From Pontiellaceae bacterium (GTDB lineage Bacteria > Verrucomicrobiota > Kiritimatiellia > Kiritimatiellales > Pontiellaceae), in assembly GCA_016937945.1 (NCBI GenBank), contig JAFGVP010000112.1, positions 1-59,654 on the forward strand: 59,654 bases of DNA, written 5' to 3'. The notes under the pieces are model-generated. The model did not search any database and was not told the DNA's origin. It worked only from the letters and a program-made list of their open reading frames with translations. The position numbers were made by a program, and so were the translations under genes. Shown piece after piece: positions 14,949 through 29,944 of the stretch (the first letter of the stretch is position 1; each line of letters opens with the position of its first letter).

Positions 14949-15731
14949 CTACTTTTTCCCTTTGGGATTTATTTTTCCCGCTTTTCCCCGCGCCCGTTTT
15001 TCCCTTCGGTCCTTCCGTTCGTTGCTGAGGCAGGTTTCCAGCCTCGATGGACTCAGCGTTTTGGGGAATGCGCTGCAAGGTGAAACGATGTCGTTTCGAA
15101 ATCGGTCGGGGTAGGCGGCTGGATACTCCCTTTTCGGGATGCCGGAGTGCAGGTAGTCCTTGGCGATTCGAAGTTGTATGTCGGGCGGTATGTTGCTCGG
15201 GCGTCCTCTTCGGACGGGTGGTTTTTCCCTCGCCGCCGCTTCAATGGAGCGCCTTGATTCTTCGATGTCGCCGAGGGTTGCGCCCGCGCCGCCGGTCTGC
15301 CGGGTCATGGTGTTGAAAAGTTCAAGGCTTATGTGTTCCAGCAACGATACCACCTCTTCCAACCGGTCCTTGAATGCGGAAACGATAAAGGGACGTTCAT
15401 CTCCCGTGCTGCTTGATAGGTGGCCCCTCAACTGCGCCAGTGATTGGAGCGACAGGGAAAGCTCATCGTGCCATCGCTTCGAGTCGGTGGAGTGGATTCG
15501 CGCCCACTGCATGAACGGTTTTAGATTCGTTCCGGTTTGGGTAACGATGTTCGATAGGCCGCCAATATCCTCAAGTTCATCGTTGATCTGAATGGCTTTT
15601 CGCTTGGCGGTGGCGAGTTGCTCCACGACGTCGGGATCGGCCAGCCGAACCGTGTACCGGTGCAATCGTTCGGCTTCGATTTCCAAGGCAGTGTAAAGCT
15701 GGGTGAAGATGTGCTTGGTCAATTTGTTCAC
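14949..15731 (-). CDS. Helical island protein of unknown function
   Basis: A 260-aa product whose ATG overlaps the integrase stop (ATGA, 15728-15731). It is mostly helical in residues 1-160, with heptad-like leucines (SLSLQSLAQLRGHL, VVSLLEHISLELF). A basic segment follows with RRGRPSNIPPDIQ (about 175), resembling an AT-hook, and a very Lys/Arg-rich tail. DNA binding is likely from the basic composition. No known family is recognised. Translation coupled to the integrase suggests a part in excision, maintenance or regulation of the island. Confidence 0.6.
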   Translation of the reverse strand: MNKLTKHIFTQLYTALEIEAERLHRYTVRLADPDVVEQLATAKRKAIQINDELEDIGGLSNIVTQTGTNLKPFMQWARIHSTDSKRWHDELSLSLQSLAQLRGHLSSSTGDERPFIVSAFKDRLEEVVSLLEHISLELFNTMTRQTGGAGATLGDIEESRRSIEAAAREKPPVRRGRPSNIPPDIQLRIAKDYLHSGIPKREYPAAYPDRFRNDIVSPCSAFPKTLSPSRLETCLSNERKDRREKRARGKAGKINPKGKK

Positions 15732-17158
15732 GCCTTCCCCTCCAGAATTTCGGAGCGAACCGATTTCCAGTTCTTGGCGGTCATGGCTTCGATTTTTTCG
15801 CGTATCCAGTCCGGTACTTGCCGGGAGGCGGGCTTGGGTTCTTCGATGGATAGGACCTGGGCGGTCTTGACGGCGGTTTCTTCGTTGACGTGAAGATAGT
15901 GCGCCGTCATGGCGGGATTGCTGTGGCCCACGTTACCTTGGATCAAGGCTTGCGGGGTTCCGCGTTCGGCATGCAGTGAAACGTAGGTGTGCCGCAGGCT
16001 GTGGAAGCCGACTTCAACTACGGCCCTTTTTCCGGTGTGCTCCTTCTTGTATCCGGTAATGCTGTGCTTGCAGGGAACCAGCCTGAAGCCCGTGCCTTCC
16101 TTGTGGATCTGAATCCCGCAGTTGGTGAAGTGCGTTTGGATAGCGCTTGTGATGTCCGACCGTCTTGTCGGTGTGCCCGAGTCGTTCCGGTAGGTGTATA
16201 GTTCGGCATGGCGGGGAAGGACATAGCCTTTCCGTTCGGTCCGGGGAGTCATGGCCAAAACCTCGAAGAGGGCGGCGGGAATCCCGATCAGGACGGGCTT
16301 ACCCTTCTTGGCGGTCTTGTTGGGAATGCGCTTGATCAACCCCCGGTCTAAATCCACTTCGCCCCATTTGAGGGTGCAGCAATCGCCAAGGCGCAAGCCT
16401 GTGAACGTGCCGAGGGAAAGCAGGATTTGCAGGTCGCCCGTTGCCTTGGTCAGGATATCCCTTAGTTCGGCAATCGTCAGCTCCCGGCGGCTTTGGGTTG
16501 TCAGGGTCTTCCGGCGCACCTTGTCGAACGGGTTTTCCTTTAGTCCGGCATCTTGTTCGAGTACGCGGAAAAACAGCCGTAGAAAGCCCGTGTGCTTGTT
16601 GTAGGTGTTCGCGCTTGTTCCGCCGTTCAGGCTCTTGGCGTATTCGGCGGCGATTTGCGGCGTCACGTTCCTCATGTCCTTGACGGCAGGGGCGTTTTCT
16701 TTCATCCATGTGGTGAATGCCGTCCAGTATGCGGCGTAAAACCGCAAGGTGTCTTCCCCCGAGTCGGGACGGTCTGCGCTGTCCAGATAGGCTTCCCATG
16801 CCATTGAGAGGGGAATAAGCGCGGCGGCCTCCTCCATGGCCTCTTCCGTGTTGGCTTTGGCTTGGGATAGTGCGGCGGTGAGCGCTTCCAGTTGATCTTC
16901 CCGCTTTCCTGCACGCAGGGGGGCGGTGAGTCGCTTCCGTTCTGCTTCGGCTTCCCGGAGGTCCGTTATCGGCTTTCCGTCCTTGCCGGTCAGTGCATGC
17001 CGCTTGCGCTTGCCGTTCAGGGTGTATTGAAGCCAGAATGTCCCCGCTGTCTTGGAATCGGAACGTATCTCCTTGCCGCTCTTGGTTCGCTTGTAGAGTC
17101 TGCCCGTGCCGCGAGCGGCTCTTGTGGCCTTGGCCTTCTTGGTGGTTTTTATGCTCAT
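15728..17158 (-). CDS. int: Tyrosine site-specific recombinase (island integrase)
   Basis: The start at 17158 has an AAGGG site 5 bases upstream. The longer frame adds 19 residues without such a signal. The 476-aa product has a basic N terminus, a core-binding SAM-like domain (about 110-210) and a catalytic domain with the expected residues: Arg in GLRLGDC (about 254), Lys in the NKTAKKGKP hairpin, HSLRH (about 389), GHSNPAMTAHY with the nucleophilic Tyr (about 419). Such enzymes cut and rejoin att sites through a 3'-phosphotyrosine. The tRNA-Arg 3' fragment 130 bases upstream is the likely attR. It heads the minus-strand island operon. Confidence 0.92.
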   Translation of the reverse strand: MSIKTTKKAKATRAARGTGRLYKRTKSGKEIRSDSKTAGTFWLQYTLNGKRKRHALTGKDGKPITDLREAEAERKRLTAPLRAGKREDQLEALTAALSQAKANTEEAMEEAAALIPLSMAWEAYLDSADRPDSGEDTLRFYAAYWTAFTTWMKENAPAVKDMRNVTPQIAAEYAKSLNGGTSANTYNKHTGFLRLFFRVLEQDAGLKENPFDKVRRKTLTTQSRRELTIAELRDILTKATGDLQILLSLGTFTGLRLGDCCTLKWGEVDLDRGLIKRIPNKTAKKGKPVLIGIPAALFEVLAMTPRTERKGYVLPRHAELYTYRNDSGTPTRRSDITSAIQTHFTNCGIQIHKEGTGFRLVPCKHSITGYKKEHTGKRAVVEVGFHSLRHTYVSLHAERGTPQALIQGNVGHSNPAMTAHYLHVNEETAVKTAQVLSIEEPKPASRQVPDWIREKIEAMTAKNWKSVRSEILEGKA

Positions 17159-17216
17159 TGTGCCCTTGTGTTTTGGTATGTTCCGAAACGTGCCAGCGAA
17201 GGGGAGTATACGCAAG

Positions 17217-19455: not shown

Positions 19456-19531
19456 TGGTGGCTGAGGAGGGACTTGAACCCACGACACGCGGATTATGAT
19501 TCCGCTGCTCTGCCGACTGAGCTACTCAGCC
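19456..19531 (-). tRNA. tRNA-Met(CAT)
   Basis: A full cloverleaf is present: acceptor GGCTGAG/CTCAGCC, D-arm GCTC-GAGC, anticodon stem GCGGA/TCCGC with loop ATCATAA (anticodon CAT), T-arm GTGGG-TTCAAGT-CCCTC, discriminator A and an encoded CCA. It has no initiator C1-A72 mismatch, so it is an elongator. A CAT tRNA whose C34 is modified to lysidine to read Ile cannot be excluded. Confidence 0.9.
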
Positions 19532-19627: not shown

Positions 19628-20488
19628 TCATTTGTTTTCTGCCGTTTTATCAACGTTTCCGGCCCCTTGGAACAAGTCCGGATATTTTTGCGGGGCCTCA
19701 AATACCTTGGTGAAATGACGGAGCAGGCGGGCACCGTGATAGCCGTCGATGTGTCGGTGATCAAACGTAAAGCCAATCTTTACGCGGCGCTGAACCACGA
19801 TCGCTCCGCCAACGACGACGGCGGATTCGAAGGGTTTCCCAACTGCGGCAAGGAAGGCCGTACGCGCTACGGGTGTCAGCGGCGTAAATGCGCTTTGCAG
19901 GCCGAGTGCGCCGATATTGGTGATGATCACCGACCCAAAGCGGTCCGGTTGCATCCCGGGGGATTTAGTGGCGAGATTCAGCGTATACTTGAAAAAGTCA
20001 TTCACCAGAAACAATGGAGCGGCAAGAAACATGGGGATTTTGCCGAGCATTCGGTCGAGTGCATGAAACTCCGGATCGTCGCCTTGCCGCAACCGCGTAA
20101 TCTCGCTGTCGCAGACGTCGGCGATCTCATGAATGGAGAGCCGGTCGATGTTGTGGATGGAAAAGCCACTGAGGTCTGCACCTTTTTTGTGCTTAAGCAG
20201 GGTGCTGATAAAAGCCGATACTTCCTTGCGCCGGTAGAGTCGTCCGCGAAGGATCACGCTGTTCAGATCGGGGTGCCGAACAAAACTGTCGCCGATGATC
20301 TTTGCAACGTAATGCGTCAGGCTTAAAGGTCGATCCTTCTGAAATTCCTTCAGGAACTGCTCCGCCGGCTCAATGTTCAGTTCTATTTCTGCATAGGTCT
20401 GGGGATCGCGCGGGTGTCGCCAGTTGCCGAGAGAAATCTTTCGGAATGCGGTCAGTGCCAACGGTCCGTTTGTTTCGATATGTTTCAT
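19628..20488 (-). CDS. Free-standing E2-type (2-oxoacid dehydrogenase) acyltransferase domain
   Basis: A 286-aa product that matches only the catalytic domain of dihydrolipoyl acyltransferases, part of the chloramphenicol acetyltransferase fold. The active-site HxxxDG motif is present as DHRHIDG (about residue 250). There is no lipoyl domain and no E1/E3-binding domain, so it is not a normal pyruvate dehydrogenase E2. It more likely transfers an acyl group from CoA to an unknown acceptor. It is the last gene of the long minus-strand operon, 52 bases after the radical SAM gene. Operon context suggests a role in modifying an envelope lipid or protein (inference). Confidence 0.75.
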   Translation of the reverse strand: MKHIETNGPLALTAFRKISLGNWRHPRDPQTYAEIELNIEPAEQFLKEFQKDRPLSLTHYVAKIIGDSFVRHPDLNSVILRGRLYRRKEVSAFISTLLKHKKGADLSGFSIHNIDRLSIHEIADVCDSEITRLRQGDDPEFHALDRMLGKIPMFLAAPLFLVNDFFKYTLNLATKSPGMQPDRFGSVIITNIGALGLQSAFTPLTPVARTAFLAAVGKPFESAVVVGGAIVVQRRVKIGFTFDHRHIDGYHGARLLRHFTKVFEAPQKYPDLFQGAGNVDKTAENK

Positions 20489-20540
20489 GGTTATCAGACT
20501 ATATGTAAGTCATCATTTCCCGCAAATTGATTTGCCGTTA

Positions 20541-21854
20541 TTATGCCGCGTGGCGGGCCCGCAGATTCTTTTTAAAGCGCTCCCGGCGCCAGCGGGTGAA
20601 TTCGTCGGAATAGAGGCGCATTGCCAGCTGATGGAATCCTTCGCGCAGTTCGGTGGCAGTCATTTTTTGCGGGCGGAAGTTGAGATCGAACAAGGTGCAT
20701 TTTTTCCAGTTGGTCGGTTCTATCAGTTGCCCGGATTTTTTCAGACGCTCATAAAGGGCGGTTCCCGGGAACGGCGTGAGAATGGTTATCTGAACCTCAT
20801 AGAGTTCCGTCTCCCGGACAAAGTCAAAGATCTGGTCAAACACATCCGTGGTCTGTCCGTCGAGTCCTGTGATGAAACAGCCGTTGACTGTGATTCCATG
20901 GGACTGGATTGTGTGAATGGCGCGGCGGTAATCCGCATAGTGGTTCAGCTTCCAGTTTGTGCGCTGTTCGAGATGATTCAGCGATGATTCGGTCGGACTT
21001 TCAAACCCGATCAATACCTGAGCGCAGCCGGACTCCCGCATCAGGCTCAGGAGTTCCGGGTCATCTGCAACCGATAGATCGGTTTCGGTAAACCACTTGA
21101 TCTTGCGTTGCCGGAGCTCTTTCAGCAGGGCTTTCCAGTAGGCTTTGTTGATGAAGCTATTATCGTCGGCAAACTCGATGAAAGGATGCGGCCAGATCTC
21201 ACAGATCCGATCGATCTCGGCCAGCACCTTCTCCATCGGTTTTTGTTTGTAATGCGACGTAATCAGGTTAGAGCCGGCACAGAATTCGCACTGATGCGGA
21301 CATCCGCGGCTGGTCTGTACGGTAAGCCGGTTATATTTTGATATATCGAGCAGTTCATAGGCCGGCATTGGAGCATCAGCCAGATCGAACTCCAATTTGC
21401 GGGCATCATAAATCAGCCTGAGCCGACCGTTTTCGGCATCATCCAGAATGTTGAGCCAGACGGGTTCACCTTCGCCCAGCACGATGGCCGTAGCATACTT
21501 GCGGGCTTCATGCGGCAGCGCCGTAACGTGCGGACCTCCCAGAATAACCGGAATGCCCATGGCCCGATATCGCATGGCCAGCTCGTACGCTTCGTTGATC
21601 TGAGCGCTGTAACTCGATATGGCCACAAGATCAAACGGTTCGGGTGTTTCGTTTTCTGCGGACAAGTCCGGCACTTCAATATATCGACATTCATGATGTG
21701 ACGGTGTCAGTCCGGCCAGCGTTAACAGTCCAAGACTCGGCAGTGACGCAATCTGCCGACTGCGCTCAACAAAGCCGGGCAGTGTGAGTCCAAGTTCAAG
21801 CAGTTCCGTGTCGCAGGCACGAATGCCGCTCATGGCGATGAATCCTATTTTCAT
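20541..21854 (-). CDS. B12-binding radical SAM enzyme
   Basis: A 437-aa product. The first 150 residues form a cobalamin-binding-like Rossmann domain (VAISSYSAQINEAYELA, ILGGPHVTALPHEA). The radical SAM [4Fe-4S] motif CPHQCEFC follows at about residue 187, then the TIM-barrel strands (FIEFADDNSFIN, GFESPTESSL). Family members methylate, cyclise or rearrange unreactive carbons, including those of hopanoids, tetrapyrroles and lipids. The start overlaps the stop of the upstream membrane gene (ATGA at 21851-21854). Substrate is unknown. The operon points to a lipid or envelope molecule. Confidence 0.85.
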   Translation of the reverse strand: MKIGFIAMSGIRACDTELLELGLTLPGFVERSRQIASLPSLGLLTLAGLTPSHHECRYIEVPDLSAENETPEPFDLVAISSYSAQINEAYELAMRYRAMGIPVILGGPHVTALPHEARKYATAIVLGEGEPVWLNILDDAENGRLRLIYDARKLEFDLADAPMPAYELLDISKYNRLTVQTSRGCPHQCEFCAGSNLITSHYKQKPMEKVLAEIDRICEIWPHPFIEFADDNSFINKAYWKALLKELRQRKIKWFTETDLSVADDPELLSLMRESGCAQVLIGFESPTESSLNHLEQRTNWKLNHYADYRRAIHTIQSHGITVNGCFITGLDGQTTDVFDQIFDFVRETELYEVQITILTPFPGTALYERLKKSGQLIEPTNWKKCTLFDLNFRPQKMTATELREGFHQLAMRLYSDEFTRWRRERFKKNLRARHAA

Positions 21855-22219
21855 AATTGCACCAACCTTTCCATGGTAAAAATAATCGACAGGATGACAG
21901 CCCCTGCCGGGATAAAGAACAGATGACGAAATGCGGGCCGAAAGGCGCTTGCGTAGCAGATCAAGGGCATCATGACGCTTCCGATAACCATCAGTATGGA
22001 TGCCGCCGAGGAACGAACGCCCAGTGACAGTGCGGTCAGGCCGAGTCCCAGATTCAGGAATCCGATTCCGAAGAAGGCAATGTGACCCAGCCGGATCATC
22101 CGGCGCGGCCAGGATGTGTAGCCGCCGAGCCAGTCAGAGCGATAAAAGAAGAGCCCGGGAACGGCACCGGAAAGCGCACCGCACAGGAACCCGATCCATA
22201 CTGCGAGAATGTTCATCAT
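21851..22219 (-). CDS. Small four-helix membrane protein of the rhombosortase operon
   Basis: The start is set at the ATG pair at 22214-22219, which overlaps the rhombosortase stop (ATGATGA). The 122-aa product has about four hydrophobic helices (starting about residues 3, 42, 68 and 95) with short loops. No family is recognised. It is translationally coupled to both the rhombosortase and the radical SAM gene, so it is likely a partner in the same membrane process. Confidence 0.7.
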   Translation of the reverse strand: MMNILAVWIGFLCGALSGAVPGLFFYRSDWLGGYTSWPRRMIRLGHIAFFGIGFLNLGLGLTALSLGVRSSAASILMVIGSVMMPLICYASAFRPAFRHLFFIPAGAVILSIIFTMERLVQL

Positions 22220-22851
22220 GCCGGCACCGCCTTTCTTTGCGCGTCTGCCAGTGAAATCAGGGCAAAAGAAGCCAATCCTCCAGCCACACCGCCGAAGTGC
22301 GTGGCCGCAACGGGGGCGCCGACGGAGCCCAGATGCAGGAAAGCAAACAGGACCTGTCCCGTAAGCAGCTCGAACAGGCTCTTGCCGATTATGATGGCCA
22401 AGCACATCCATCCGGTGCGACGGAGTCCGTGATCCGCAGAAAATGCAAGCTCAAGTCCGCTGACCGCCATCAGGCCGTGAGCGATTCCGGAAAGTCCGCA
22501 AAGTCCGCCATTCAGGGACGAGAAGGCCAGCGAGGCGATCAGGCTGCCGAAGGTGCAGCCGGCCGCGATCGCTCCGCGGCGGGTGAACGACATTCTGCCG
22601 AGGCCATGATACAGATAGAGAAATGCGGAGGAATCCAGCAGCAGGTGATAGAGGCTGACGTGAACAAATGGAAACGTGACCGCCCGCCACCATTCGCCGG
22701 CAATCCACGCTTCGGGCCGGAAAATGAGCGGATCACAAACACGCCCGAAGAGCAGGGGACTGTTTACCGCTAGCAGTATGATCGTGAAGACCCATAGTTC
22801 CGGCGGAAGATTTTTCAGATGGTTTGTGATCTGTTTCATGTTGCTGTCCAA
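22216..22851 (-). CDS. rrtA: Rhombosortase (rhomboid-family intramembrane serine protease)
   Basis: A 211-aa product with about six membrane helices. The rhomboid catalytic Ser lies in GLSGIAHG (about residue 120) and the His in ATHFGGVAGG (about 185). The loop WWRAVTFPFVHVSLYHLLLD matches the rhomboid L1/H2 region. Short rhomboids of this type paired with C-terminal sorting tails (GlyGly-CTERM) are called rhombosortases: they cut the tail of exported proteins in the inner membrane. One base separates it from the gene whose product ends in a Gly-rich tail, short hydrophobic helix and basic end (22853-23251). That gene is the evident substrate and supports the call. Confidence 0.8.
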   Translation of the reverse strand: MDSNMKQITNHLKNLPPELWVFTIILLAVNSPLLFGRVCDPLIFRPEAWIAGEWWRAVTFPFVHVSLYHLLLDSSAFLYLYHGLGRMSFTRRGAIAAGCTFGSLIASLAFSSLNGGLCGLSGIAHGLMAVSGLELAFSADHGLRRTGWMCLAIIIGKSLFELLTGQVLFAFLHLGSVGAPVAATHFGGVAGGLASFALISLADAQRKAVPA

Positions 22852-22852
22852 T

Positions 22853-23251
22853 TTAGGCTGCGAGCTTTTTGCGGCGGTTCAGCCAGGCCATGAGGCCGAT
22901 AAAGAGCGGACCGACCGGACCTGTTCCGATGCCCGGGGCCCGTTGATTGTTGAAGGTTCCGCCGTTGTCGGAACGGTAACTGCGCGACGGCTGTGATGCC
23001 CGTTGCGTTTGCGCCAGCCGCTCGCGCTGGACCCGGCCATGATTGCGTCGCTGAATCCCTTCGTTTTCGAGGGCTTCGTCGTTCAGTACGATCATGGCGG
23101 TATAATCGGTCACAAGAGAATACTCGGTTCCGAGATCAACGACCCTGCGGCGCAGGGAGTCATTTTCGCCCTCCTCGCGAATCACCTGCATCGTTTCGTC
23201 TATTTTAGAAAGCGCCCACAGCCGTTCGATTTCCGGATTATCCGTATCCAC
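22853..23251 (-). CDS. C-terminal sorting-tail segment of the VWA protein, split off by an in-frame TAA
   Basis: A 132-codon frame that begins at a GTG directly after the TAA of the lipase-VWA gene, in the same frame. Its first part (NPEIERLWALSKIDE, then RRRVVDLGTEYSLVTDYTAM) is the standard helical segment that follows the VWA domain in VIT-VWA proteins. The end (GIGTGPVGPLFIGLMAW, then NRRKK) is a Gly-rich, hydrophobic and basic tail like GlyGly-CTERM rhombosortase signals. It is therefore the C terminus of the upstream protein and not an independent gene. The TAA is one base from GAA. No ribosome binding site is seen for the GTG, though coupling is possible. Confidence 0.75.
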   Translation of the reverse strand: MDTDNPEIERLWALSKIDETMQVIREEGENDSLRRRVVDLGTEYSLVTDYTAMIVLNDEALENEGIQRRNHGRVQRERLAQTQRASQPSRSYRSDNGGTFNNQRAPGIGTGPVGPLFIGLMAWLNRRKKLAA

Positions 23252-25006
23252 TTAAGGAAGCATCGTCGTGCAGTTCCAGACCCGTTCCGTGCCGGATATC
23301 TTAGCTTTCAGCTTCAGGTTAACCTCTCCGGCTCCGTGATAGCGCCCGAAGGCCACAAGCTGCTGGCCCATGAATAGATTGCCCGGTGAGGCCGGCGTGA
23401 GGTCATAGACTTTTTCGCAGCTGAACTGAAGCTGTACGTCATGCATGCATTGATGCATTACCTTGATCTTTGCCTGCAGCAGGCGTCCGACAATGTCGTC
23501 CGAACCTGAAATGTTCATAGCAAATCCGCCGGAATCCTTCGCCAATCGTTCCATCAACGGCTGGTTGGCGCTGTTGCCCATCACAAAGGTAAAGAGGCGG
23601 ATGTCATATTCCCTGAGCAGTTCAAGAAAGGCTTTGTGCTCCGTCGGCCCCACATTGCAGACCCCGTCGGTGACGAGAATAATTCCCGACGTGCGATCGT
23701 CATCCAGGCTGCGATATGCCTTTTTCAGCCCGGCGAACAGTGCTGTGCCTCCGCCGGCCTGAATCTGGCGAATATTGGTAATCCACTGCTGTACGTTTTC
23801 CGGCGAGGCCTGCACATAACCACGTGTCAGTTCCTGTGCATGGTCATTAAAGGTGATCAGCTTGAAGCGATCGTTCGGCGTCATTTTTCCAAGCACCTGT
23901 TCAACACCTTTGGCCAGCGACTGAATCTTGCCGCCGGACATGCTTCCGGAGGTGTCCAGCAGGAAGATCCAGTCGGAGCCTTCCTGAATCGGCGCCAGCG
24001 ATGCCGCCGGCGTCACGACGGCCATGAAGGTGCCCGGTTCCTGTGCGGATTCGCGGTAGGGAATGATTTCAACGCGGGCCGGCACGGAATCATCAAGGCG
24101 ATAGTAGAATACAATATCGCGTGAGAGGGTTGCGCCGCCTTCGTTCTGTTCCAGCACGGCAGTGCACACATCGTTTGATTGTGCAATCCGGGCCAGTTGG
24201 TCATATCCGGGCATGCGCACATCCGCCACTGGAAAAGCCGACTTCAGGGTCAGGTTGAATGAAAACTGTTCATGGACCTGGTCATCGGTCTCCCAGAAGG
24301 CAATCCGTTCTTCATCCACGCCGCCGTCCGCCAGCGGATAGACATAACGACCAATGTTTAGATCAATCTCCATGGGCTGGTAATAGGCGTCGGGTCTGAC
24401 GCGCGCAATGGAGACCTTGCCGTCATCCGGTCCGGGAATCAGAAGGGAGAGAATCAGGTTAATCGAGCGGTCGCCCGCAATGATGCCCAATTCAAACGCC
24501 GGAGTTTCAAGCCGGAGCGGGAGGCTGTTTTTTCCGGTGCCCAGCTGATTCCCGGCCGGACCATTAATCCATTTGTATAGAAAGATATTCCCCAGCTTGT
24601 CGGTCACTTCGCTGCCCTTGCTGGGCGGTGCCAACATGACCACCCTGCCCAGATTCGCCAGCTCGTGTTCCTGCAGGTAGTAGCGGAGGACGATGCCGCC
24701 CATGGAGTGCGTGACGAAATGGACGATTTCATCGTTTTCGATCTGCGGGGTCAGTTCATCAAAAATCTGCGGAGCCAGCTCTTCGATCGATGCAGCGGTG
24801 GACGGGTAATCGACGTTGATCACGCGATATCCATCCCCCCTCAGTTCATCAGCTATTCTGTTCATTGCCTTGCTCGATCGAACCAGACCGTGCAGCAGGA
24901 CAACGGTTTCTCTCCGGGAGGACTCCGATGAATCATCGTGCGCCGACTGAGCCCGCACGGAGCAGATAATCAGACTGAGGATCAGGATGGTGATCAGGAT
25001 TTTCAC
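23252..25006 (-). CDS. Lipase/alpha-beta hydrolase fused to a VIT-remnant and VWA domain, truncated by TAA
   Basis: The start is a GTG at 25006 that overlaps the upstream stop (GTGA) and leads straight into a signal peptide (MKILITILILSLIICSVRA). The 584-aa product has an alpha/beta hydrolase domain at about 25-215, with nucleophile motif THSMGG (about 99) and oxyanion HGL. It then joins abruptly, after DGKVSI, to the second half of a VIT domain and a VWA domain with MIDAS motif DTSGSMSGG (about 352). Both parent domains look cut at the junction, so a deletion fusion of two genes is likely. The frame stops at 23252 and continues in frame in 22853-23251. It is presumably exported to the periplasm or surface and processed by the rhombosortase. 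Confidence 0.8.
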   Translation of the reverse strand: MKILITILILSLIICSVRAQSAHDDSSESSRRETVVLLHGLVRSSKAMNRIADELRGDGYRVINVDYPSTAASIEELAPQIFDELTPQIENDEIVHFVTHSMGGIVLRYYLQEHELANLGRVVMLAPPSKGSEVTDKLGNIFLYKWINGPAGNQLGTGKNSLPLRLETPAFELGIIAGDRSINLILSLLIPGPDDGKVSIARVRPDAYYQPMEIDLNIGRYVYPLADGGVDEERIAFWETDDQVHEQFSFNLTLKSAFPVADVRMPGYDQLARIAQSNDVCTAVLEQNEGGATLSRDIVFYYRLDDSVPARVEIIPYRESAQEPGTFMAVVTPAASLAPIQEGSDWIFLLDTSGSMSGGKIQSLAKGVEQVLGKMTPNDRFKLITFNDHAQELTRGYVQASPENVQQWITNIRQIQAGGGTALFAGLKKAYRSLDDDRTSGIILVTDGVCNVGPTEHKAFLELLREYDIRLFTFVMGNSANQPLMERLAKDSGGFAMNISGSDDIVGRLLQAKIKVMHQCMHDVQLQFSCEKVYDLTPASPGNLFMGQQLVAFGRYHGAGEVNLKLKAKISGTERVWNCTTMLP

Positions 25007-28000
25007 GCAAACTGTACCATTTTCTGAATAGAGTAGAGGTCGAGCTTTCCGGTTCCCAGGATCGGTATTTCCGGAATACTGAAGAAGTTGGCGATACGCG
25101 GAATCCATAGATTCGGAAGCCCGATGGCGCGTAGCTTTGCAATCAGCTCCGCGGGGTCGCCGGCCTGAGCCGTGTAACAGACAGCCAGCTGTTCGCCCTT
25201 GGCTGCATCGTCAATGCTGACCACGGCTACGCACGGCGAGTCCGTGCCGGCGGCCTGCTGCAGGGCATCCTCGATGGCGCCGTGCGGAACCATTTCTCCG
25301 CCGATCTTGCTGAAGCGCGAAATGCGTCCGGTAATGAAAACATATCCGTGTTTATCCATGCGGGCCATGTCGCCGGTATTGTACCAGCCATCCTGCAGCA
25401 CTTCGGCCGTCTTTTCCGGCTGATTCAGATAGCCCTGCATCACATTGGGGCCCTTGATGAGCATCAGCCCCTCTTCGCCGTCGTTCAGCGCGATGCGGGT
25501 CTCCGGATCGACAATGCGTACGGCAGTACCCGGCAACGGCTGTCCGGCGCTGCCGGCTCGATAGCTGTTTTTAAGACTGAGCAGAGCCACTGGTGAGAGT
25601 TCGGTGCATCCGTAGCCTTCGAGCGGACGGATATCAAACTGCTCCTCAAAACGATCGGCCAACTCCGGACGAAGCTTTTCGCCGCCCGTAATGATATGTT
25701 TCAGGCTGGCAAAATCCTCCGATTTTGCCTTGCGCATATATCCCTGCAGGAAAGTCGGAGTGGAGAGCAGGGCCGTCAGTTTTTCTTCCCGGATCAGACG
25801 GATTACGCGTTCGGTCTGCAGCGGATTCGGATGATAGGCCACGCGGATGCCCTTGAGCAGCGGCCACCACATCAGCCCCAGATATCCGAATGCATGGAAG
25901 AGCGGAAGAATGGCACACATGGAATCTCTGGGACTGAAGTGCTGGACCGCCTGAGTGCCATCCACATTGGACAGGATGTTGGCATGGCTGAGCATGACGC
26001 CCTTGGGTGCACCGGTGGTGCCGGAAGAGAATATAATGGTTGCGATATCATCCGGCTGTGGTTCTCGGTTTCCTGCCAGATGTTTCGGCGATCCAAAGAG
26101 GGCCGCGCATATGGCCCGCAGGCGCTCAATATGTCCAAGGTTCTTGAGTTCGTCCTCGATGTAGAGCCAGCGCACCGGCAGATCCGGTTTCTGTATCTTC
26201 TGCATGAAGCGGCGCGATGTGAGAACATATTTAATGCGGGCCTGCTTTGTTGCCGATGACAGCGCCTCCGACGATGCCGTCCAATTCAGGTTTATACTGG
26301 TTTTTCCTGAAAGGGTGACGGCCAGGTTGGCCAGAACACCGCCCAGCGAGGTCGGCATGTAGATGCCGATATTCTTCTGGTTGGAAATATTCGGCTTGAT
26401 GCGATTGGCCAGCGCGACGCTTCCGGTCAGAAGCTTGCCATAGCTGGCTTTGTTGCCCAGCGTATCCGATGCGATCGGACGGAACCAGCGGCGACGTGCC
26501 TGATGGATAAAACAATGCGGAAGCGTGTTGCCCGGAAGCCGGCTTTTTTCGGAGGCATATTCAGCCCCAAGCTCGGCAATCACGCGACGGGCTTCATCGG
26601 CTCCGGTGCAGGACGGCAGTGGTGCACCGAAGCGGACAGATACAGGATAGCGCAGTTTGAACGGAAATTTGAGCCCGGGGCGGCCCTTGTAAAAGCTGAA
26701 GATACTGCCCCAGATGTTTCCGATATGCGCCGGAATGATCGGACAGTTACTGTTGCGGGCAATTTTTTCGAAACCTTTGTTAAACTGCATCAGGTTTCCG
26801 TTGCGCGTCAGCTTGCCTTCCGGAAAAACGGCCACGATGGCGCCGTCTTCCATGGCCTGGCGGGCCTCTTTCAGCGAATTGGCCAGTGCACGCGGACCAT
26901 CGGAGGTATGGATTGGAATACAGTCGGTGAGGGTAAATATGGGCTTTGCCCACTTCCATGTTTTGAATACGTCGCGAGACATGACGAACCGGACGGGACG
27001 CGATGTGGCCGCCTGCAGCAGCAGAGCGTCGGCATAGGCGGTGTGGTTGCAGATCAGCAGGGCTCCGCCTTCACGCGGTAGGTTTTCCGTTCCGCTGAAG
27101 CGTACTTTATATAAACGTTTGACCAGTCGACTCAGGCAGAAACGAACCAGCGAACTGGAAAGCTTACGGCAGGCGATGGCCGCCGGCACCAATGCCAGAA
27201 GGGCCGTAGCAAATACGCAGTGGCGCGCATTGAAGTGAAAGACCTTGGTCATCAGAGCAAAGAGACCGGAGGCGGCAATCATGGCGGTAAAGCTTAGGAA
27301 TCCGGATGCACCGAACACTTCGCCGCGTCGTTCGGCAGGAATCCGATGCTGAAGAAATGCATTCAGCGGGACTAGGTAGATGCCGCAGCAGACGCCAAGA
27401 ATGACGATCCAGCCGGCAATCCATGCCGGATGAGCAGCGAAAGCCAGAGCCGTTGCAGCGAAAGCGATGCCGATTGCACCGACGGGAATCAGTCCGACTT
27501 CAATCGTGTGACGGGACATTTTCCCCGACAAGAGGGCGCCTAGACCGATGCCGACGGCCGCGAGAGGGAATAGAATCGGGCTGCGATCCAGCGATAGATT
27601 CAAGGCCTGTTGCCCGTAGATGATGAGCGTCTGCTGAAAGAGTGCGGACACCGCCCCGAACAGCACGAGTCCAAGAACGGCAAGCCGGGCCCAAGTGTCT
27701 TCTTTAAGATTGCGGACAGCACGTATGACGTCGGGAATAATAAGAACCGACGACTTTTTAGTAGTTCCGGCGGCTTTCACATGGGCAATGCGATAGGCGG
27801 CCAAAGTCCCGATTACAGCAAAGACGGTGCAGAGAGCAATCACCCATAACGCACTGTAGCCCAGATAGCCGATCAGCAGCGCCGGCGTTGCCGTGCCCAG
27901 AATGATCGCTGCATAGGTCGAGGCGGTAAGAAATCCATTGGCTCTGGAGAGTTCCGGCGCCTCAACCAACTCGGGAACGATACCGCGCTTAGACGGACCG

Positions 28001-28341
28001 AACAGGGCGCTCTGCGCGCAGAGCAGAAAGAGCAACGCATAAAGCGGCAGTGAAGCTCCGGACAACACGCTGGGAATGGCGAGAACCAGCAGGGCGATTT
28101 CCAGCCATTTTGTCACGATGATAACGGTGCGTTTGCTGATTCGATCGGCCAGTGTCCCTGCGGCATTTGAGAAGAGAAGGAAAGGGAGGACAAACAGAAT
28201 AGAGCAGGTGGCTATGACTGTCTCTTTCTGAGTTTCTCCCATAAGATTTACGAGACCGATGATTGCGGTCATCTTGAAGGCGTTATCATTGAAGGCGCCC
28301 GTAAACTGACTGACGTTTAGCCATTTAAATGTTTTTTTCAT
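25003..28341 (-). CDS. aas: LplT-PlsC-acyl-ACP synthetase fusion (Aas-type lysophospholipid acylation)
   Basis: A 1112-aa product with three modules. Residues 1 to about 385 are an MFS-type transporter resembling LplT (FNDNAFKM, GTLADRISKR). Residues about 400-600 are a PlsC-like acyltransferase with NHTAYAD (HX4D, about 432) and FPEGKLTRNG. Residues about 640-1110 are an AMP-forming acyl ligase with SSGTTGAPKGVMLSH (about 775). In bacteria with LplT-Aas this system flips lysophospholipids inward and re-acylates them. It is the first gene of the operon, 40 bases after a -24/-12 promoter and with an AGGAGCGG site. It overlaps the lipase-VWA gene by four bases. Confidence 0.9.
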   Translation of the reverse strand: MKKTFKWLNVSQFTGAFNDNAFKMTAIIGLVNLMGETQKETVIATCSILFVLPFLLFSNAAGTLADRISKRTVIIVTKWLEIALLVLAIPSVLSGASLPLYALLFLLCAQSALFGPSKRGIVPELVEAPELSRANGFLTASTYAAIILGTATPALLIGYLGYSALWVIALCTVFAVIGTLAAYRIAHVKAAGTTKKSSVLIIPDVIRAVRNLKEDTWARLAVLGLVLFGAVSALFQQTLIIYGQQALNLSLDRSPILFPLAAVGIGLGALLSGKMSRHTIEVGLIPVGAIGIAFAATALAFAAHPAWIAGWIVILGVCCGIYLVPLNAFLQHRIPAERRGEVFGASGFLSFTAMIAASGLFALMTKVFHFNARHCVFATALLALVPAAIACRKLSSSLVRFCLSRLVKRLYKVRFSGTENLPREGGALLICNHTAYADALLLQAATSRPVRFVMSRDVFKTWKWAKPIFTLTDCIPIHTSDGPRALANSLKEARQAMEDGAIVAVFPEGKLTRNGNLMQFNKGFEKIARNSNCPIIPAHIGNIWGSIFSFYKGRPGLKFPFKLRYPVSVRFGAPLPSCTGADEARRVIAELGAEYASEKSRLPGNTLPHCFIHQARRRWFRPIASDTLGNKASYGKLLTGSVALANRIKPNISNQKNIGIYMPTSLGGVLANLAVTLSGKTSINLNWTASSEALSSATKQARIKYVLTSRRFMQKIQKPDLPVRWLYIEDELKNLGHIERLRAICAALFGSPKHLAGNREPQPDDIATIIFSSGTTGAPKGVMLSHANILSNVDGTQAVQHFSPRDSMCAILPLFHAFGYLGLMWWPLLKGIRVAYHPNPLQTERVIRLIREEKLTALLSTPTFLQGYMRKAKSEDFASLKHIITGGEKLRPELADRFEEQFDIRPLEGYGCTELSPVALLSLKNSYRAGSAGQPLPGTAVRIVDPETRIALNDGEEGLMLIKGPNVMQGYLNQPEKTAEVLQDGWYNTGDMARMDKHGYVFITGRISRFSKIGGEMVPHGAIEDALQQAAGTDSPCVAVVSIDDAAKGEQLAVCYTAQAGDPAELIAKLRAIGLPNLWIPRIANFFSIPEIPILGTGKLDLYSIQKMVQFA

Positions 28342-28381
28342 GGTTCCGCTCCTGATGCTGTTCTTCGTACGAAACCCTTAT

Positions 28382-28397
28382 TGCATAGGGTATGCCA
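28382..28397 (-). promoter_or_regulatory. Sigma54 (-24/-12) promoter of the rhombosortase operon
   Basis: The minus strand reads TGGCATACCCTATGCA. It has GG and GC separated by exactly ten bases and the conserved TGGCA and TGCA blocks (consensus TGGCAC-N5-TTGCA). It points at the Aas gene 41 bases away. A sigma54 activator gene is divergently encoded from 28511, which strongly supports the call. The remaining bases of 28342-28510 should hold the activator's enhancer sites, but no clear repeat was picked out. Confidence 0.75.
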
Positions 28398-28510
28398 TTG
28401 GTGGTTGCGCTCGCGTAACATGCTTATTGTTAATTAATTGTAAAAGTAATGCTGTTTTGCCGCGGATAATTGAATGGACATTTAATGAATGGCGTGCCTA
28501 CATAATATGA

Positions 28511-29944
28511 ATGAACAGTGCATTCTTTATGATGATCGCGGAGGCGGCATTCAGTAATCCGTTTTCCGACCGACGAGTGGAAGTGGATCGAAGAATTGTC
28601 GGGGCCCGAGAGGGCGCGGGCTGGCACGAAATGCTTGCCCCCTTGCTGGGGCAGCTTGAGAAGCGCATTGACGAGTTTGTGGCGGCGAATGCCGTGATCA
28701 TTGATCCGGATGGTGATGAAGAAACCCGTGCCATCGGGGTCAGCATCCTGTTTCATGTTTTTCACCGCTACATGCTGCAATTTGATCAGCTGATCGAAGA
28801 GCAGATCGAGGCCGGCGAGGATTCTTGTCGCGCACCCTTTGCTGCTGCCTGCCTGGAGGATCTGGTGTCATTCGGGTTCGACCGAAAAGAGTCCTGTCGA
28901 TACGTGGCCATTTTTTATCAGGTCCGGCGCGCCTACTTTTTTATCTCGAAGGAGCTTGTCGGAGACAGTCCCTGTATGAAGCGACTGCGCGCCCGACTCT
29001 GGGACAATATATTCACCCATGATATCGGATGGTATGAACGGAGCTTATGGAACCGCATGGAAGATTTTTCCACCTTGCTGCTCGGAGAGACCGGGACCGG
29101 CAAGGGTGCGGCAGCGGCCGCCATCGGGCGCTCCGGATTTATTCCATTTAATCCGCATACGCAGAAGTTTGAGGAAAGTTTTACGCGGGCATTCGTAAGC
29201 ATCAACCTGTCTCAATATCCCGAATCGCTGATTGAATCCGAACTGTTCGGTCACCGAAAGGGGGCCTTTACCGGGGCCATTGAGAGGCATGAAGGAGTTT
29301 TTTCACGCTGCAGTCCATATGGGGCCATTTTCCTGGATGAAATCGGAGACGTCAGCATTCCTGTTCAGATCAAACTGCTTCAGGTACTGCAGGAGCGCAC
29401 CTTTTCGCCGGTCGGCAGTCATGACAAGGTCCGATTTGCCGGCCGTGTGATTGCTGCAACCAATAAGTCGTTGGATATCTTGCGGCATGAGGGAAAGTTT
29501 CGGGATGATTTTTATTACCGGCTATGCTCGGACCTGATCACGGTTCCGCCGTTGCGTGCGCGCATTCTGGAGGATGGCGGAGAGCTGGAATCACTGGTAA
29601 CGCATATTACACACAGAATCTGCGGTGGCCCGGTGAAAATACCCGTGCTGAAGATTCTGAAGGAGCAGGTGGGTAGGTGCTATGCGTGGCCCGGAAATGT
29701 CCGGGAACTCGAACAGGCCATTCGGCGGATCATGCTGACCGGATCGTATGCCGGCGATACCGCTTTGGATCCTGAAAAAGAGGACTCCGTCGAGCGAGTC
29801 ATGACGTCGGGAACGCTCAGCGCAAGAGAGCTCGTGGAAAAATACTGCTGCGAACTGTATGAACGGTTCGGCAATTATGGAGAGGTTGCCCGGAGGACCG
29901 GGCTGGATTGGCGTACCGTAAAAAAGAATGTACAGAACAAATAG
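28511..29944 (+). CDS. Sigma54-dependent transcriptional activator (enhancer-binding protein)
   Basis: The 477-aa product has an AAA+ domain with Walker A GETGTGKG (about 191), the sigma54-contact loop GAFTGA (about 251) and Walker B IFLDEIG (about 273). A Fis-type helix-turn-helix lies at the end (NYGEVARRTGLDWRTVKKNV). The first 185 residues are helical and are neither a receiver, GAF nor PAS domain that I recognise, so the input signal is unknown. These proteins use ATP to open sigma54 promoter complexes. It is divergent from the operon whose promoter carries the -24/-12 motif, so it is its likely regulator. Several ATGs (28511, 28529, 28532) are possible starts, and none has a strong ribosome binding site. 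Confidence 0.88.
   Translation: MNSAFFMMIAEAAFSNPFSDRRVEVDRRIVGAREGAGWHEMLAPLLGQLEKRIDEFVAANAVIIDPDGDEETRAIGVSILFHVFHRYMLQFDQLIEEQIEAGEDSCRAPFAAACLEDLVSFGFDRKESCRYVAIFYQVRRAYFFISKELVGDSPCMKRLRARLWDNIFTHDIGWYERSLWNRMEDFSTLLLGETGTGKGAAAAAIGRSGFIPFNPHTQKFEESFTRAFVSINLSQYPESLIESELFGHRKGAFTGAIERHEGVFSRCSPYGAIFLDEIGDVSIPVQIKLLQVLQERTFSPVGSHDKVRFAGRVIAATNKSLDILRHEGKFRDDFYYRLCSDLITVPPLRARILEDGGELESLVTHITHRICGGPVKIPVLKILKEQVGRCYAWPGNVRELEQAIRRIMLTGSYAGDTALDPEKEDSVERVMTSGTLSARELVEKYCCELYERFGNYGEVARRTGLDWRTVKKNVQNK

What the first reader, a model, noticed from the sequence alone, without database searches (positions are those of the whole stretch)
19628..29944. A sigma54-controlled rhombosortase operon with lipid-remodelling enzymes: candidate new envelope modification system
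Seen: eight overlapping or closely spaced minus-strand frames (Aas-type fusion, lipase-VWA, sorting tail, rhombosortase, 4-helix protein, B12 radical SAM, E2-type acyltransferase), a -24/-12 motif ahead of the first, and a divergent sigma54 activator. Known: rhombosortases process exported proteins with GlyGly-type tails; Aas re-acylates lysophospholipids; sigma54 activators usually act on divergent operons. Inference: one regulated pathway that cuts a surface protein, joins or modifies it with a lipid, and repairs the lipid by-product. I know of no described operon with this full set.
Basis: partly seen in the sequence, partly recalled or inferred. Interest (0 to 1): 0.8.

Follow-up and report, generated by a model that had tools for sequence, protein, structure and literature searches.

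The report
Rhombosortase operon with lipid-repair genes, decaying
This stretch holds a worn copy of a widespread bacterial gene set in which one regulator appears to control both an enzyme that cuts and anchors a surface protein and enzymes that repair membrane lipids; in this genome the surface-protein gene itself is broken.

Summary
The genes are real, but the observation needs correcting. The "lipase-VWA" and "sorting tail" frames are remains of two genes: about 560 bp present in the nearest relative are missing (lipase end, VWA start with VIT domain), and an in-frame TAA cuts off the sorting tail. Relatives carry separate complete lipase and VIT-VWA genes followed by rhombosortase.

Neighbourhood analysis gives four layers. 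(1) Sigma54 activator, VIT-VWA and rhombosortase form a conserved unit across several phyla. (2) LplT-Aas type fusions recur with it (17 of 75 named loci; control frames 0-1) and, without it, beside the same activator family (38 of 63 copies near Aas). (3) The small membrane protein and B12 radical SAM are a separate, movable pair. (4) The E2-like gene is probably a chance neighbour.

Dedicated rhombosortase pairs and VWA-type targets were described in 2011. Not found in my paper searches: the dedicated sigma54 activator and the link to lysophospholipid recycling. The GPVG tail escapes the GlyGly-CTERM model. The link bears on an open question, how rhombosortase products acquire a glycerophosphoethanolamine lipid. 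The biochemistry is inferred; nothing was tested at the bench.

The parts
28511..29944 (+). Sigma54-dependent activator (477 aa): unassigned N-terminal domain of about 175 aa, AAA+ with GAFTGA, C-terminal HTH-like end
   Evidence: PF00158 147.6 bits; same family divergent to the operon in relatives; N-terminal domain without Pfam match or convincing PDB match (best E 0.11)
28382..28397 (-). -24/-12-type sigma54 promoter element TGGCATACCCTATGCA ahead of the Aas gene
   Evidence: TGGCA and TGC invariant in 12 of 12 aligned loci
25003..28341 (-). LplT-Aas type fusion: MFS transporter + PlsC-like acyltransferase + acyl-ACP synthetase-like domain (1112 aa), frame intact
   Evidence: PF07690, PF01553, PF00501; NF006386 1167.8 bits over residues 3-1108, under its cut-off of 1221
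24386..25006 (-). Remnant of a secreted alpha/beta hydrolase ('lip'); likely GTG start overlapping the Aas stop; C-terminus lost at the deletion, with the TH motif shared by relatives
   Evidence: complete 249-aa copy in L040
23252..24385 (-). Remnant of the VIT-VWA substrate gene: VWA domain kept, signal peptide and VIT domain lost, ends at an in-frame TAA (23252-23254)
   Evidence: TIGR03788 positions 171-503 only; one search lists the window match with 1 TAA; VIT and VWA both matched in L040
22853..23251 (-). C-terminal part of the same VWA gene, in frame after the TAA, with the sorting tail GIGTGPVGPLFIGLMAWLNRRKK
   Evidence: TIGR03788 519-583; tail aligned in 13 loci; only strong tail in this genome
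22216..22851 (-). Rhombosortase (211 aa); Ser of GLSG and the later His invariant in 14 aligned sequences
   Evidence: TIGR03902 86.1 bits; alignment A2; profile matches GlpG structures
21851..22219 (-). Small membrane protein (about 122 aa), partner of the radical SAM gene; separate module
   Evidence: directly ahead of the radical SAM also in stretches without Aas or rhombosortase (L140-L144, L147)
20541..21854 (-). B12-binding radical SAM enzyme (437 aa); separate module
   Evidence: PF04055 and PF02310; 34 of 288 genomes at E <= 1e-60
19628..20488 (-). E2-type acyltransferase catalytic domain without lipoyl domain; probably an unrelated neighbour
   Evidence: PF00198; 12 of 288 genomes; other contig in G188

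Best explanation
The window carries a decaying copy of a sigma54-controlled envelope module. Shown by comparison: a family of sigma54 activators sits beside, mostly divergent to, operons that carry a one-substrate rhombosortase pair (VIT-VWA protein with a GPVG tail, plus its rhombosortase), an LplT-Aas type fusion, or both. Inferred: on an envelope signal read by the activator's N-terminal domain, sigma54 switches the operon on; the VIT-VWA protein is exported; rhombosortase cuts its tail in the membrane and the new C-terminal glycine is joined to an ethanolamine phospholipid, as reported for VesB; LplT-Aas with accompanying hydrolases keeps the phospholipid pool repaired. In this genome the substrate gene is broken, so the sorting half is probably idle while the lipid half may still work.
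For: ORF clustering of 75 named rhombosortase loci: rhombosortase 74, VIT-VWA 65, activator 45, Aas fusion 17 loci. VWA directly upstream of rhombosortase in 57 of 63 testable loci; activator divergent and adjacent in 38 of 51, 39 with L220, where the script took a paralogue. 28 other long frames of the window as controls hit 0 (26) or 1 (2) of the 75 loci. In the class, 38 of 63 activator copies lie within 8 kb of Aas and 11 near VWA, 3 of these near both. On a tree of 80 activators the cargo labels need at least 27 changes (labels are blurred by contig ends). -24/-12 score of 10 or more in 29 of 59 intergenic regions facing the operon, 0 of 59 facing the activator. One strong tail per genome in 14 of 16 rhombosortase genomes, next best hit E 0.024. 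Lipid enzymes nearby: phosphatidylserine decarboxylase in L045, lipase beside rhombosortase and Aas in L264. VesB carries a glycerophosphoethanolamine moiety (PMC6219818, passages).
Against: 58 of 75 rhombosortase loci show no Aas in the DNA held (some cut short), and most Aas-activator pairs show no VWA (35 against 3), so neither needs the other. The Aas+VWA label is not clustered on the activator tree beyond chance (59 of 500 shuffles as low). Nine VWA genes with 1.8 kb or more upstream have no activator there. The ethanolamine-lipid step is known from Vibrio and its mechanism is undescribed (PMC11389362, passages). No structure could be predicted and no sensor function is shown. 17 activator copies have neither cargo within 8 kb; seven of these lie on contigs of 3.3-6.4 kb, and two (L153, L278) show weaker Aas-like pieces.
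Confidence: 0.55

Rival explanations
1. One envelope-stress regulator controls two independent tools: LplT-Aas repairs lysophospholipids made by phospholipases or lost asymmetry, and the VIT-VWA/rhombosortase pair displays a surface protein. They share a signal, not a chemical pathway.
For: Each cargo occurs alone beside the activator (35 copies with Aas only, 8 with VWA only). LplT-Aas recycles lysophospholipids in E. coli, and these are proposed as signals there (PMC13170283, passages). The Aas+VWA combination is not clustered on the activator tree.
Against: The two cargoes meet in one locus in different orders in several lineages, and phosphatidylserine decarboxylase joins them in L045.
Confidence: 0.3
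2. The rhombosortase step itself releases a lysophospholipid, which Aas re-acylates.
For: Co-occurrence of rhombosortase and Aas (17 of 75 loci), as with lipoprotein N-acylation, where lyso-PE is recycled by LplT-Aas (recalled, not from a call).
Against: The reported product carries glycerophosphoethanolamine or perhaps whole PE, which needs no acyl removal; most rhombosortase loci show no Aas.
Confidence: 0.1
3. The broken VWA gene in the window is an assembly or sequencing error and the real genome has an intact lipase and VIT-VWA gene.
For: Draft assembly of 183 contigs; rhombosortase frame still open.
Against: Two separate lesions in one gene; an in-frame junction with only a few shared bases; damage to the VWA gene in other loci too (L042 and L051, two MAGs, share a junction; L045/L247 and L242); window rhombosortase is 55-56% identical to those of L040 and L041, which are 66% identical to each other, while Aas shows little such lag (75, 74, 77%).
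Confidence: 0.15
4. The genes are chance neighbours with no shared function.
For: Likely for the E2-like gene.
Against: Controls; multi-phylum recurrence.
Confidence: 0.03

Closest known systems
Dedicated rhombosortase/GlyGly-CTERM systems (Haft and Varghese 2011, PMC3237569; passages and section 15 seen)
   Same: Single target gene next to a TIGR03902 rhombosortase (16 of 21 single-target genomes there); proteins with vault/inter-alpha-trypsin and VWA homology are among the tailed proteins they show; Opitutus terrae and Rhodopirellula baltica are in their table.
   Different: The tail here is GPVG-type and does not reach the GlyGly-CTERM model cut-off; the parts of the paper that I saw name no sigma54 activator or Aas fusion. 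Whether their dedicated targets are VIT-VWA proteins I did not check.
Vibrio cholerae RssP/VesB (PMC6219818 passages; PMC11389362 passages; PMC13393428 outline and abstract)
   Same: Intramembrane rhomboid-type sorter acting on a C-terminal tripartite tail.
   Different: In Vibrio one sorter has six tailed proteins; here one tailed protein, adjacent to the sorter, with lipid enzymes in some lineages.
LplT-Aas lysophospholipid recycling (E. coli; PMC13170283 passages)
   Same: MFS transporter, acyltransferase and acyl-ACP synthetase functions.
   Different: Here fused in one polypeptide, near a sigma54 activator, and in L264 and L269 with an extra ACP-like segment (my reading).
TIGR03788 marine proteobacterial sortase target with its dedicated sortase (pairing from PMC3237569 passage)
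   Same: VWA-type protein with a sorting tail beside its own sorter.
   Different: Rhombosortase instead of sortase; scores far below the model cut-off.

Membership tests
Rhombosortase (TIGR03902) | score above curated cut-off of 84 bits | tested here: met
   86.1 bits
Rhombosortase (TIGR03902) | catalytic Ser (GLSG) and His conserved | tested here: met
   S121 and H185 invariant in 14 sequences
Rhombosortase (TIGR03902) | cleaves and sorts a tailed protein | not testable with these tools
   needs biochemistry
GlyGly-CTERM (TIGR03501) | tail scores above the model cut-off of 15.5 bits | tested here: not met
   5 matches in the own genome, none over cut-off, none in the window's contig; VWA proteins of L040, L041 and L203 not matched up to E 1
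GlyGly-CTERM-like tripartite tail | Gly motif, hydrophobic stretch, basic end at the C-terminus | tested here: met
   13 tails aligned; GPVG in 58 of 65 named loci
Dedicated rhombosortase system | one target per genome, next to the sorter | tested here: met
   one strong tail in 14 of 16 genomes (13 of these tails built the profile, so the test is the absence of others); VWA directly upstream of the sorter in 57 of 63 loci. In the window the target is broken
TIGR03788 marine sortase target | score above 551.65 bits | tested here: not met
   133.1 and 25.9 bits for the two window frames; 215-252 bits in three relatives
LplT-Aas fusion (NF006386/PRK08633) | score above the curated cut-off of 1221 bits | tested here: not met
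   1167.8 bits over residues 3-1108 of 1112
LplT-Aas fusion (NF006386/PRK08633) | MFS + PlsC acyltransferase + AMP-binding domains in order | tested here: met
Sigma54 activator (bacterial enhancer-binding protein) | PF00158 domain with GAFTGA | tested here: met
   GAFTGA read in the translation
Sigma54-dependent promoter | -24/-12 element ahead of the operon, and rpoN in the genome | tested here: met
   (marginal alone, conserved in relatives); two sigma54 genes; transcription itself not tested

The most novel reading that the evidence does not exclude
A multi-phylum sigma54 regulon couples C-terminal lipid anchoring of one surface protein with lysophospholipid recycling, and the neighbouring hydrolases and Aas remodel the acyl chains of the protein-linked ethanolamine phospholipid itself, a bacterial counterpart of GPI-anchor remodelling.
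Probability: 0.15. Interest if true: 0.85.

Novelty: new variant of a known kind. Interest (0 to 1): 0.6.

Why it matters
How rhombosortase products receive a glycerophosphoethanolamine-type lipid is undescribed (PMC11389362, passages). Haft and Varghese proposed looking at conserved neighbours of dedicated systems for unknown components (PMC3237569). The neighbours found here (LplT-Aas fusion, hydrolases, in one locus phosphatidylserine decarboxylase, and a dedicated sigma54 activator) are concrete candidates. At least one cultured isolate carries activator, VIT-VWA, rhombosortase and Aas fusion together (Desulforhopalus singaporensis DSM 12130, L269), so the question becomes testable.

Tried and rejected
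Rejected: one natural lipase-VWA fusion protein (L040, L041 and L264 have a complete separate lipase; the junction removes the lipase's TH motif and the VIT domain). Rejected: the radical SAM, small membrane protein and E2 gene as parts of the rhombosortase pathway. Left open: an aminotransferase fused to a FeeM-like domain (FeeM below its cut-off), HMG-CoA reductase and a BtaA-like gene (named by eye; its family search failed) in or near the same operons in some relatives. Led nowhere: TIGR03501 search of the own genome; PDB profile search for the activator's N-terminal domain; direct repeats around the operon (none); loci of G089 and of G000 contig 82 (L054, L055: no match to any query).

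Rows dropped or chosen before counts: L276 and L277 (no query matched) were left out and L201/L202 were replaced by the same stretches held as L040/L041; one search left out L276/L277. One search used 59 regions that I chose where activator and operon start were both in hand. In one search loci that duplicate others, L254, and activators with stops or under about 430 matched residues were left out; L228, a long branch, was kept; labels 'V', 'A' and 'other' are lower bounds because contigs end (L153 has a cut Aas). In one search the VWA list was cut to 17 of the 39 matches; the other 22 are 26-31% identical. The 28 control frames are long ORFs, not all proven genes.
Full report
What is there. 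The window is contig 38 of a draft genome of 4.28 Mb in 183 contigs. Relatives with names are Kiritimatiellales/Pontiellaceae MAGs: L201 has the same length and map as L040 (G188, same genus), L202 the same as L041 (G192, same order). The minus-strand frames run Aas fusion, lipase remnant, VWA remnant, tail, rhombosortase, small membrane protein, B12 radical SAM, E2-like domain, with a sigma54 activator divergent from the Aas gene. The genome has two sigma54 genes.

The substrate gene is broken. The frame 23252-25108 matches an alpha/beta hydrolase at its start and a VWA domain at its end, but TIGR03788 aligns only from position 171, and the profile continues at position 519 in the next frame, which is in the same phase behind a TAA. 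In L040 a complete 249-aa lipase is followed by a 657-aa protein with VIT domain, VWA domain and tail. About 560 bp of that arrangement are missing in the window (551 bp against L041). The missing part holds the end of the lipase, with a TH motif that I see in L040, L041, L042 and L051, and the VIT domain. One search lists no second VWA copy in this genome at E <= 1e-40 (4 of 7 candidates scored). The window rhombosortase has kept its Ser and His but is 55-56% identical to those of L040 and L041, which are 66% identical to each other; for Aas the values are 75, 74 and 77%, for VWA 77, 76 and 72%. That fits relaxed constraint after loss of the substrate, though it is one lineage. Damage to the VWA gene is seen elsewhere: L042 and L051, two MAGs of one genus, share the same lipase-VWA junction and L051 has lost more; L045 (= L247) has lost the middle of the gene with a change of frame; L242 has an in-frame stop.

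Conservation in the class. Of 288 genomes, 8 have a rhombosortase over the model cut-off; I fetched the surroundings of 16 high scorers. Matches to the activator at E <= 1e-95 occur in 62 genomes, 63 copies. Within 8 kb, 35 copies have Aas alone, 8 have VWA alone, 3 have both and 17 neither; seven of the last lie on contigs of 3.3-6.4 kb and two show weaker or cut Aas-like pieces (L153, L278). Twelve of the 38 Aas pairs are not adjacent and divergent: they lie further off or are co-directional. In the window's genus the usual order is activator, Aas, lipase, small membrane protein, radical SAM, without rhombosortase (for instance L117, L120, L123, L125, L126); VWA-rhombosortase sits between lipase and small membrane protein in the window and in L040. 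The same slot holds an aminotransferase gene with a FeeM-like part in L118, L122 and L134 and a piece of it in L121. The radical SAM gene is found at E <= 1e-60 in 34 of 288 genomes and follows the small membrane protein in fetched stretches where neither Aas nor rhombosortase is near (L140-L144, L147). The E2-like gene is found in 12 of 288 genomes at E <= 1e-25 and, in G188, on a contig other than the operon's, where the radical SAM gene is followed by the aminotransferase gene instead; both contigs are draft pieces.

Conservation beyond the class. A profile of 14 rhombosortases found 77 named loci, whose records are labelled Kiritimatiellae, Lentisphaerae, Verrucomicrobia, Planctomycetota, various Desulfobacterales and Desulfuromonadales, Nitrospirota, Chlamydiota, Proteobacteria and others. 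Clustering all ORFs of at least 90 aa in 75 of them gives rhombosortase 74 loci, VIT-VWA 65, activator 45 and Aas 17 as recurrent families. By the strand and place of their examples, most of the other large clusters are frames opposite or within these genes. Smaller ones are ABC transporter ATPases (7 loci, a common family), a lipase (5), an amidohydrolase (5; in L242, L244 and L262 ahead of Aas) and a phospholipase D-like gene (4) (domains checked on L040, L244 and L242). VWA precedes rhombosortase in 57 of 63 loci with enough upstream DNA; the activator is divergent and adjacent in 38 of 51 (39 with L220); 9 with enough DNA have none. Aas lies directly downstream (L238, L225, L248), about 1.1-1.2 kb downstream (L242, L244, L253, L262, L247), or upstream with the lipase (L040, L041, L224, L272). 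In L225 the fusion is only MFS + acyltransferase (630 aa). As a control, 28 other long frames of the window were searched in the same 75 loci: 26 hit none and 2 hit one. On a tree of 80 activators the cargo labels need 27 changes (shuffled mean 41.3; none of 200 shuffles as low), so cargo partly follows descent but has changed many times. The Aas+VWA label needs 10 changes, at least 8 by well-supported branches, and is not clustered beyond chance (59 of 500 shuffles as low); contig ends blur the labels.

Promoter. A -24/-12-like element was scored in 59 regions between activator and operon: 29 score 10 or more of 12 towards the operon and 0 of 59 towards the activator; 39 of 59 have p <= 0.05 against shuffles, 20 do not. 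The window's own site scores 9, p = 0.055. In 12 loci of the window's genus and order TGGCA and TGC are invariant in otherwise diverged DNA.

The tail. In 13 aligned tails a G and GPVG are invariant; 58 of 65 named-locus VWA frames carry GPVG near the end, and the 7 misses are near variants (L208, L210, L220, L221, L269) and two broken genes (L242, L247). A profile of the tail finds one strong hit (E <= 5e-11) in 14 of 16 genomes; 13 of these tails built the profile, so what is tested is that no other protein has one: the next best hit anywhere has E 0.024. The hit lies in the VWA gene, or, in G000 and G104, in a separate frame of the broken gene. The two exceptions are G241, whose VWA is deleted, and G140, whose VWA protein ends in another motif. 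The GlyGly-CTERM model has no match over its cut-off in this genome.

How it may work. Shown: gene linkage, one-to-one pairing, promoter-like element, conserved catalytic residues. From literature: rhombosortase cleaves GlyGly-CTERM and the product VesB carries a glycerophosphoethanolamine moiety, possibly PE (PMC6219818, passages), by an undescribed mechanism (PMC11389362, passages); LplT and Aas move and re-acylate lysophospholipids (PMC13170283, passages). Inferred: the activator senses envelope or lipid damage and turns on both anchoring and lipid repair. Support for a lipid theme comes from phosphatidylserine decarboxylase in L045 and a hydrolase between rhombosortase and Aas in L296, the same locus, a lipase beside rhombosortase and Aas in L264, and ACP-like segments in the 1295-1296-aa fusions of L264 and L269 (the ACP reading is mine, from the sequence). 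Whether Aas acts on a by-product, on the anchor itself, or only in parallel cannot be decided here.

Novelty. Dedicated rhombosortase pairs, and tailed proteins with VWA/inter-alpha-trypsin homology, are known since 2011 (PMC3237569; passages and section 15). Searches of the paper library for rhombosortase with sigma-54, lysophospholipid transporter with sigma-54, rhombosortase with lysophosph, and RpoN with lysophospholipid and Aas gave no papers; the library lacks most subscription journals, and other wordings were not tried.

Noticed in passing
L042:4150-4400, L051:4000-4260, L045/L247, L242 near 9400, window 23252-24385: The VIT-VWA substrate gene is damaged in several loci while the Aas gene, and in most of them the rhombosortase, stays open, suggesting repeated loss of the substrate.
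   Followed up: partly
L264:1558-5448 and L269:10868-14755: MFS-acyltransferase fusions of 1295-1296 aa with what looks by eye like an acyl carrier protein segment between acyltransferase and acyl-ACP synthetase.
   Followed up: no
window 28470-28510, alignment A4 columns 6-43: Next to the activator start, relatives share ATACAT/ATGTAT-like blocks, about 100 bp upstream of the -24/-12 element; a candidate activator binding site.
   Followed up: no
L118:11126-12853, L041:10211-12293, L125:12972-15177: An aminotransferase fused to a FeeM-like domain, and HMG-CoA reductase followed by a BtaA-like gene (the last named by eye), sit in or after the same operons in relatives.
   Followed up: partly
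L280, L284, L286, L148: A UbiE-like methyltransferase gene (family checked on L148 only), in L148 and L284 followed by what looks like a radical SAM gene, lies beside the same activator family where no rhombosortase was found.
   Followed up: partly
L039 (G140:C322): The best-scoring rhombosortase of the 288 genomes pairs with a VIT-VWA protein whose tail reads GGGGAFDPIGG instead of GPVG, so sorter and tail may vary together.
   Followed up: no
window 15728-17215: Frame reading by eye as a tyrosine recombinase/integrase, 2.2 kb from a tRNA-Met at 19456-19531; no direct repeat of 22 bp or more between 12000 and 32000.
   Followed up: partly
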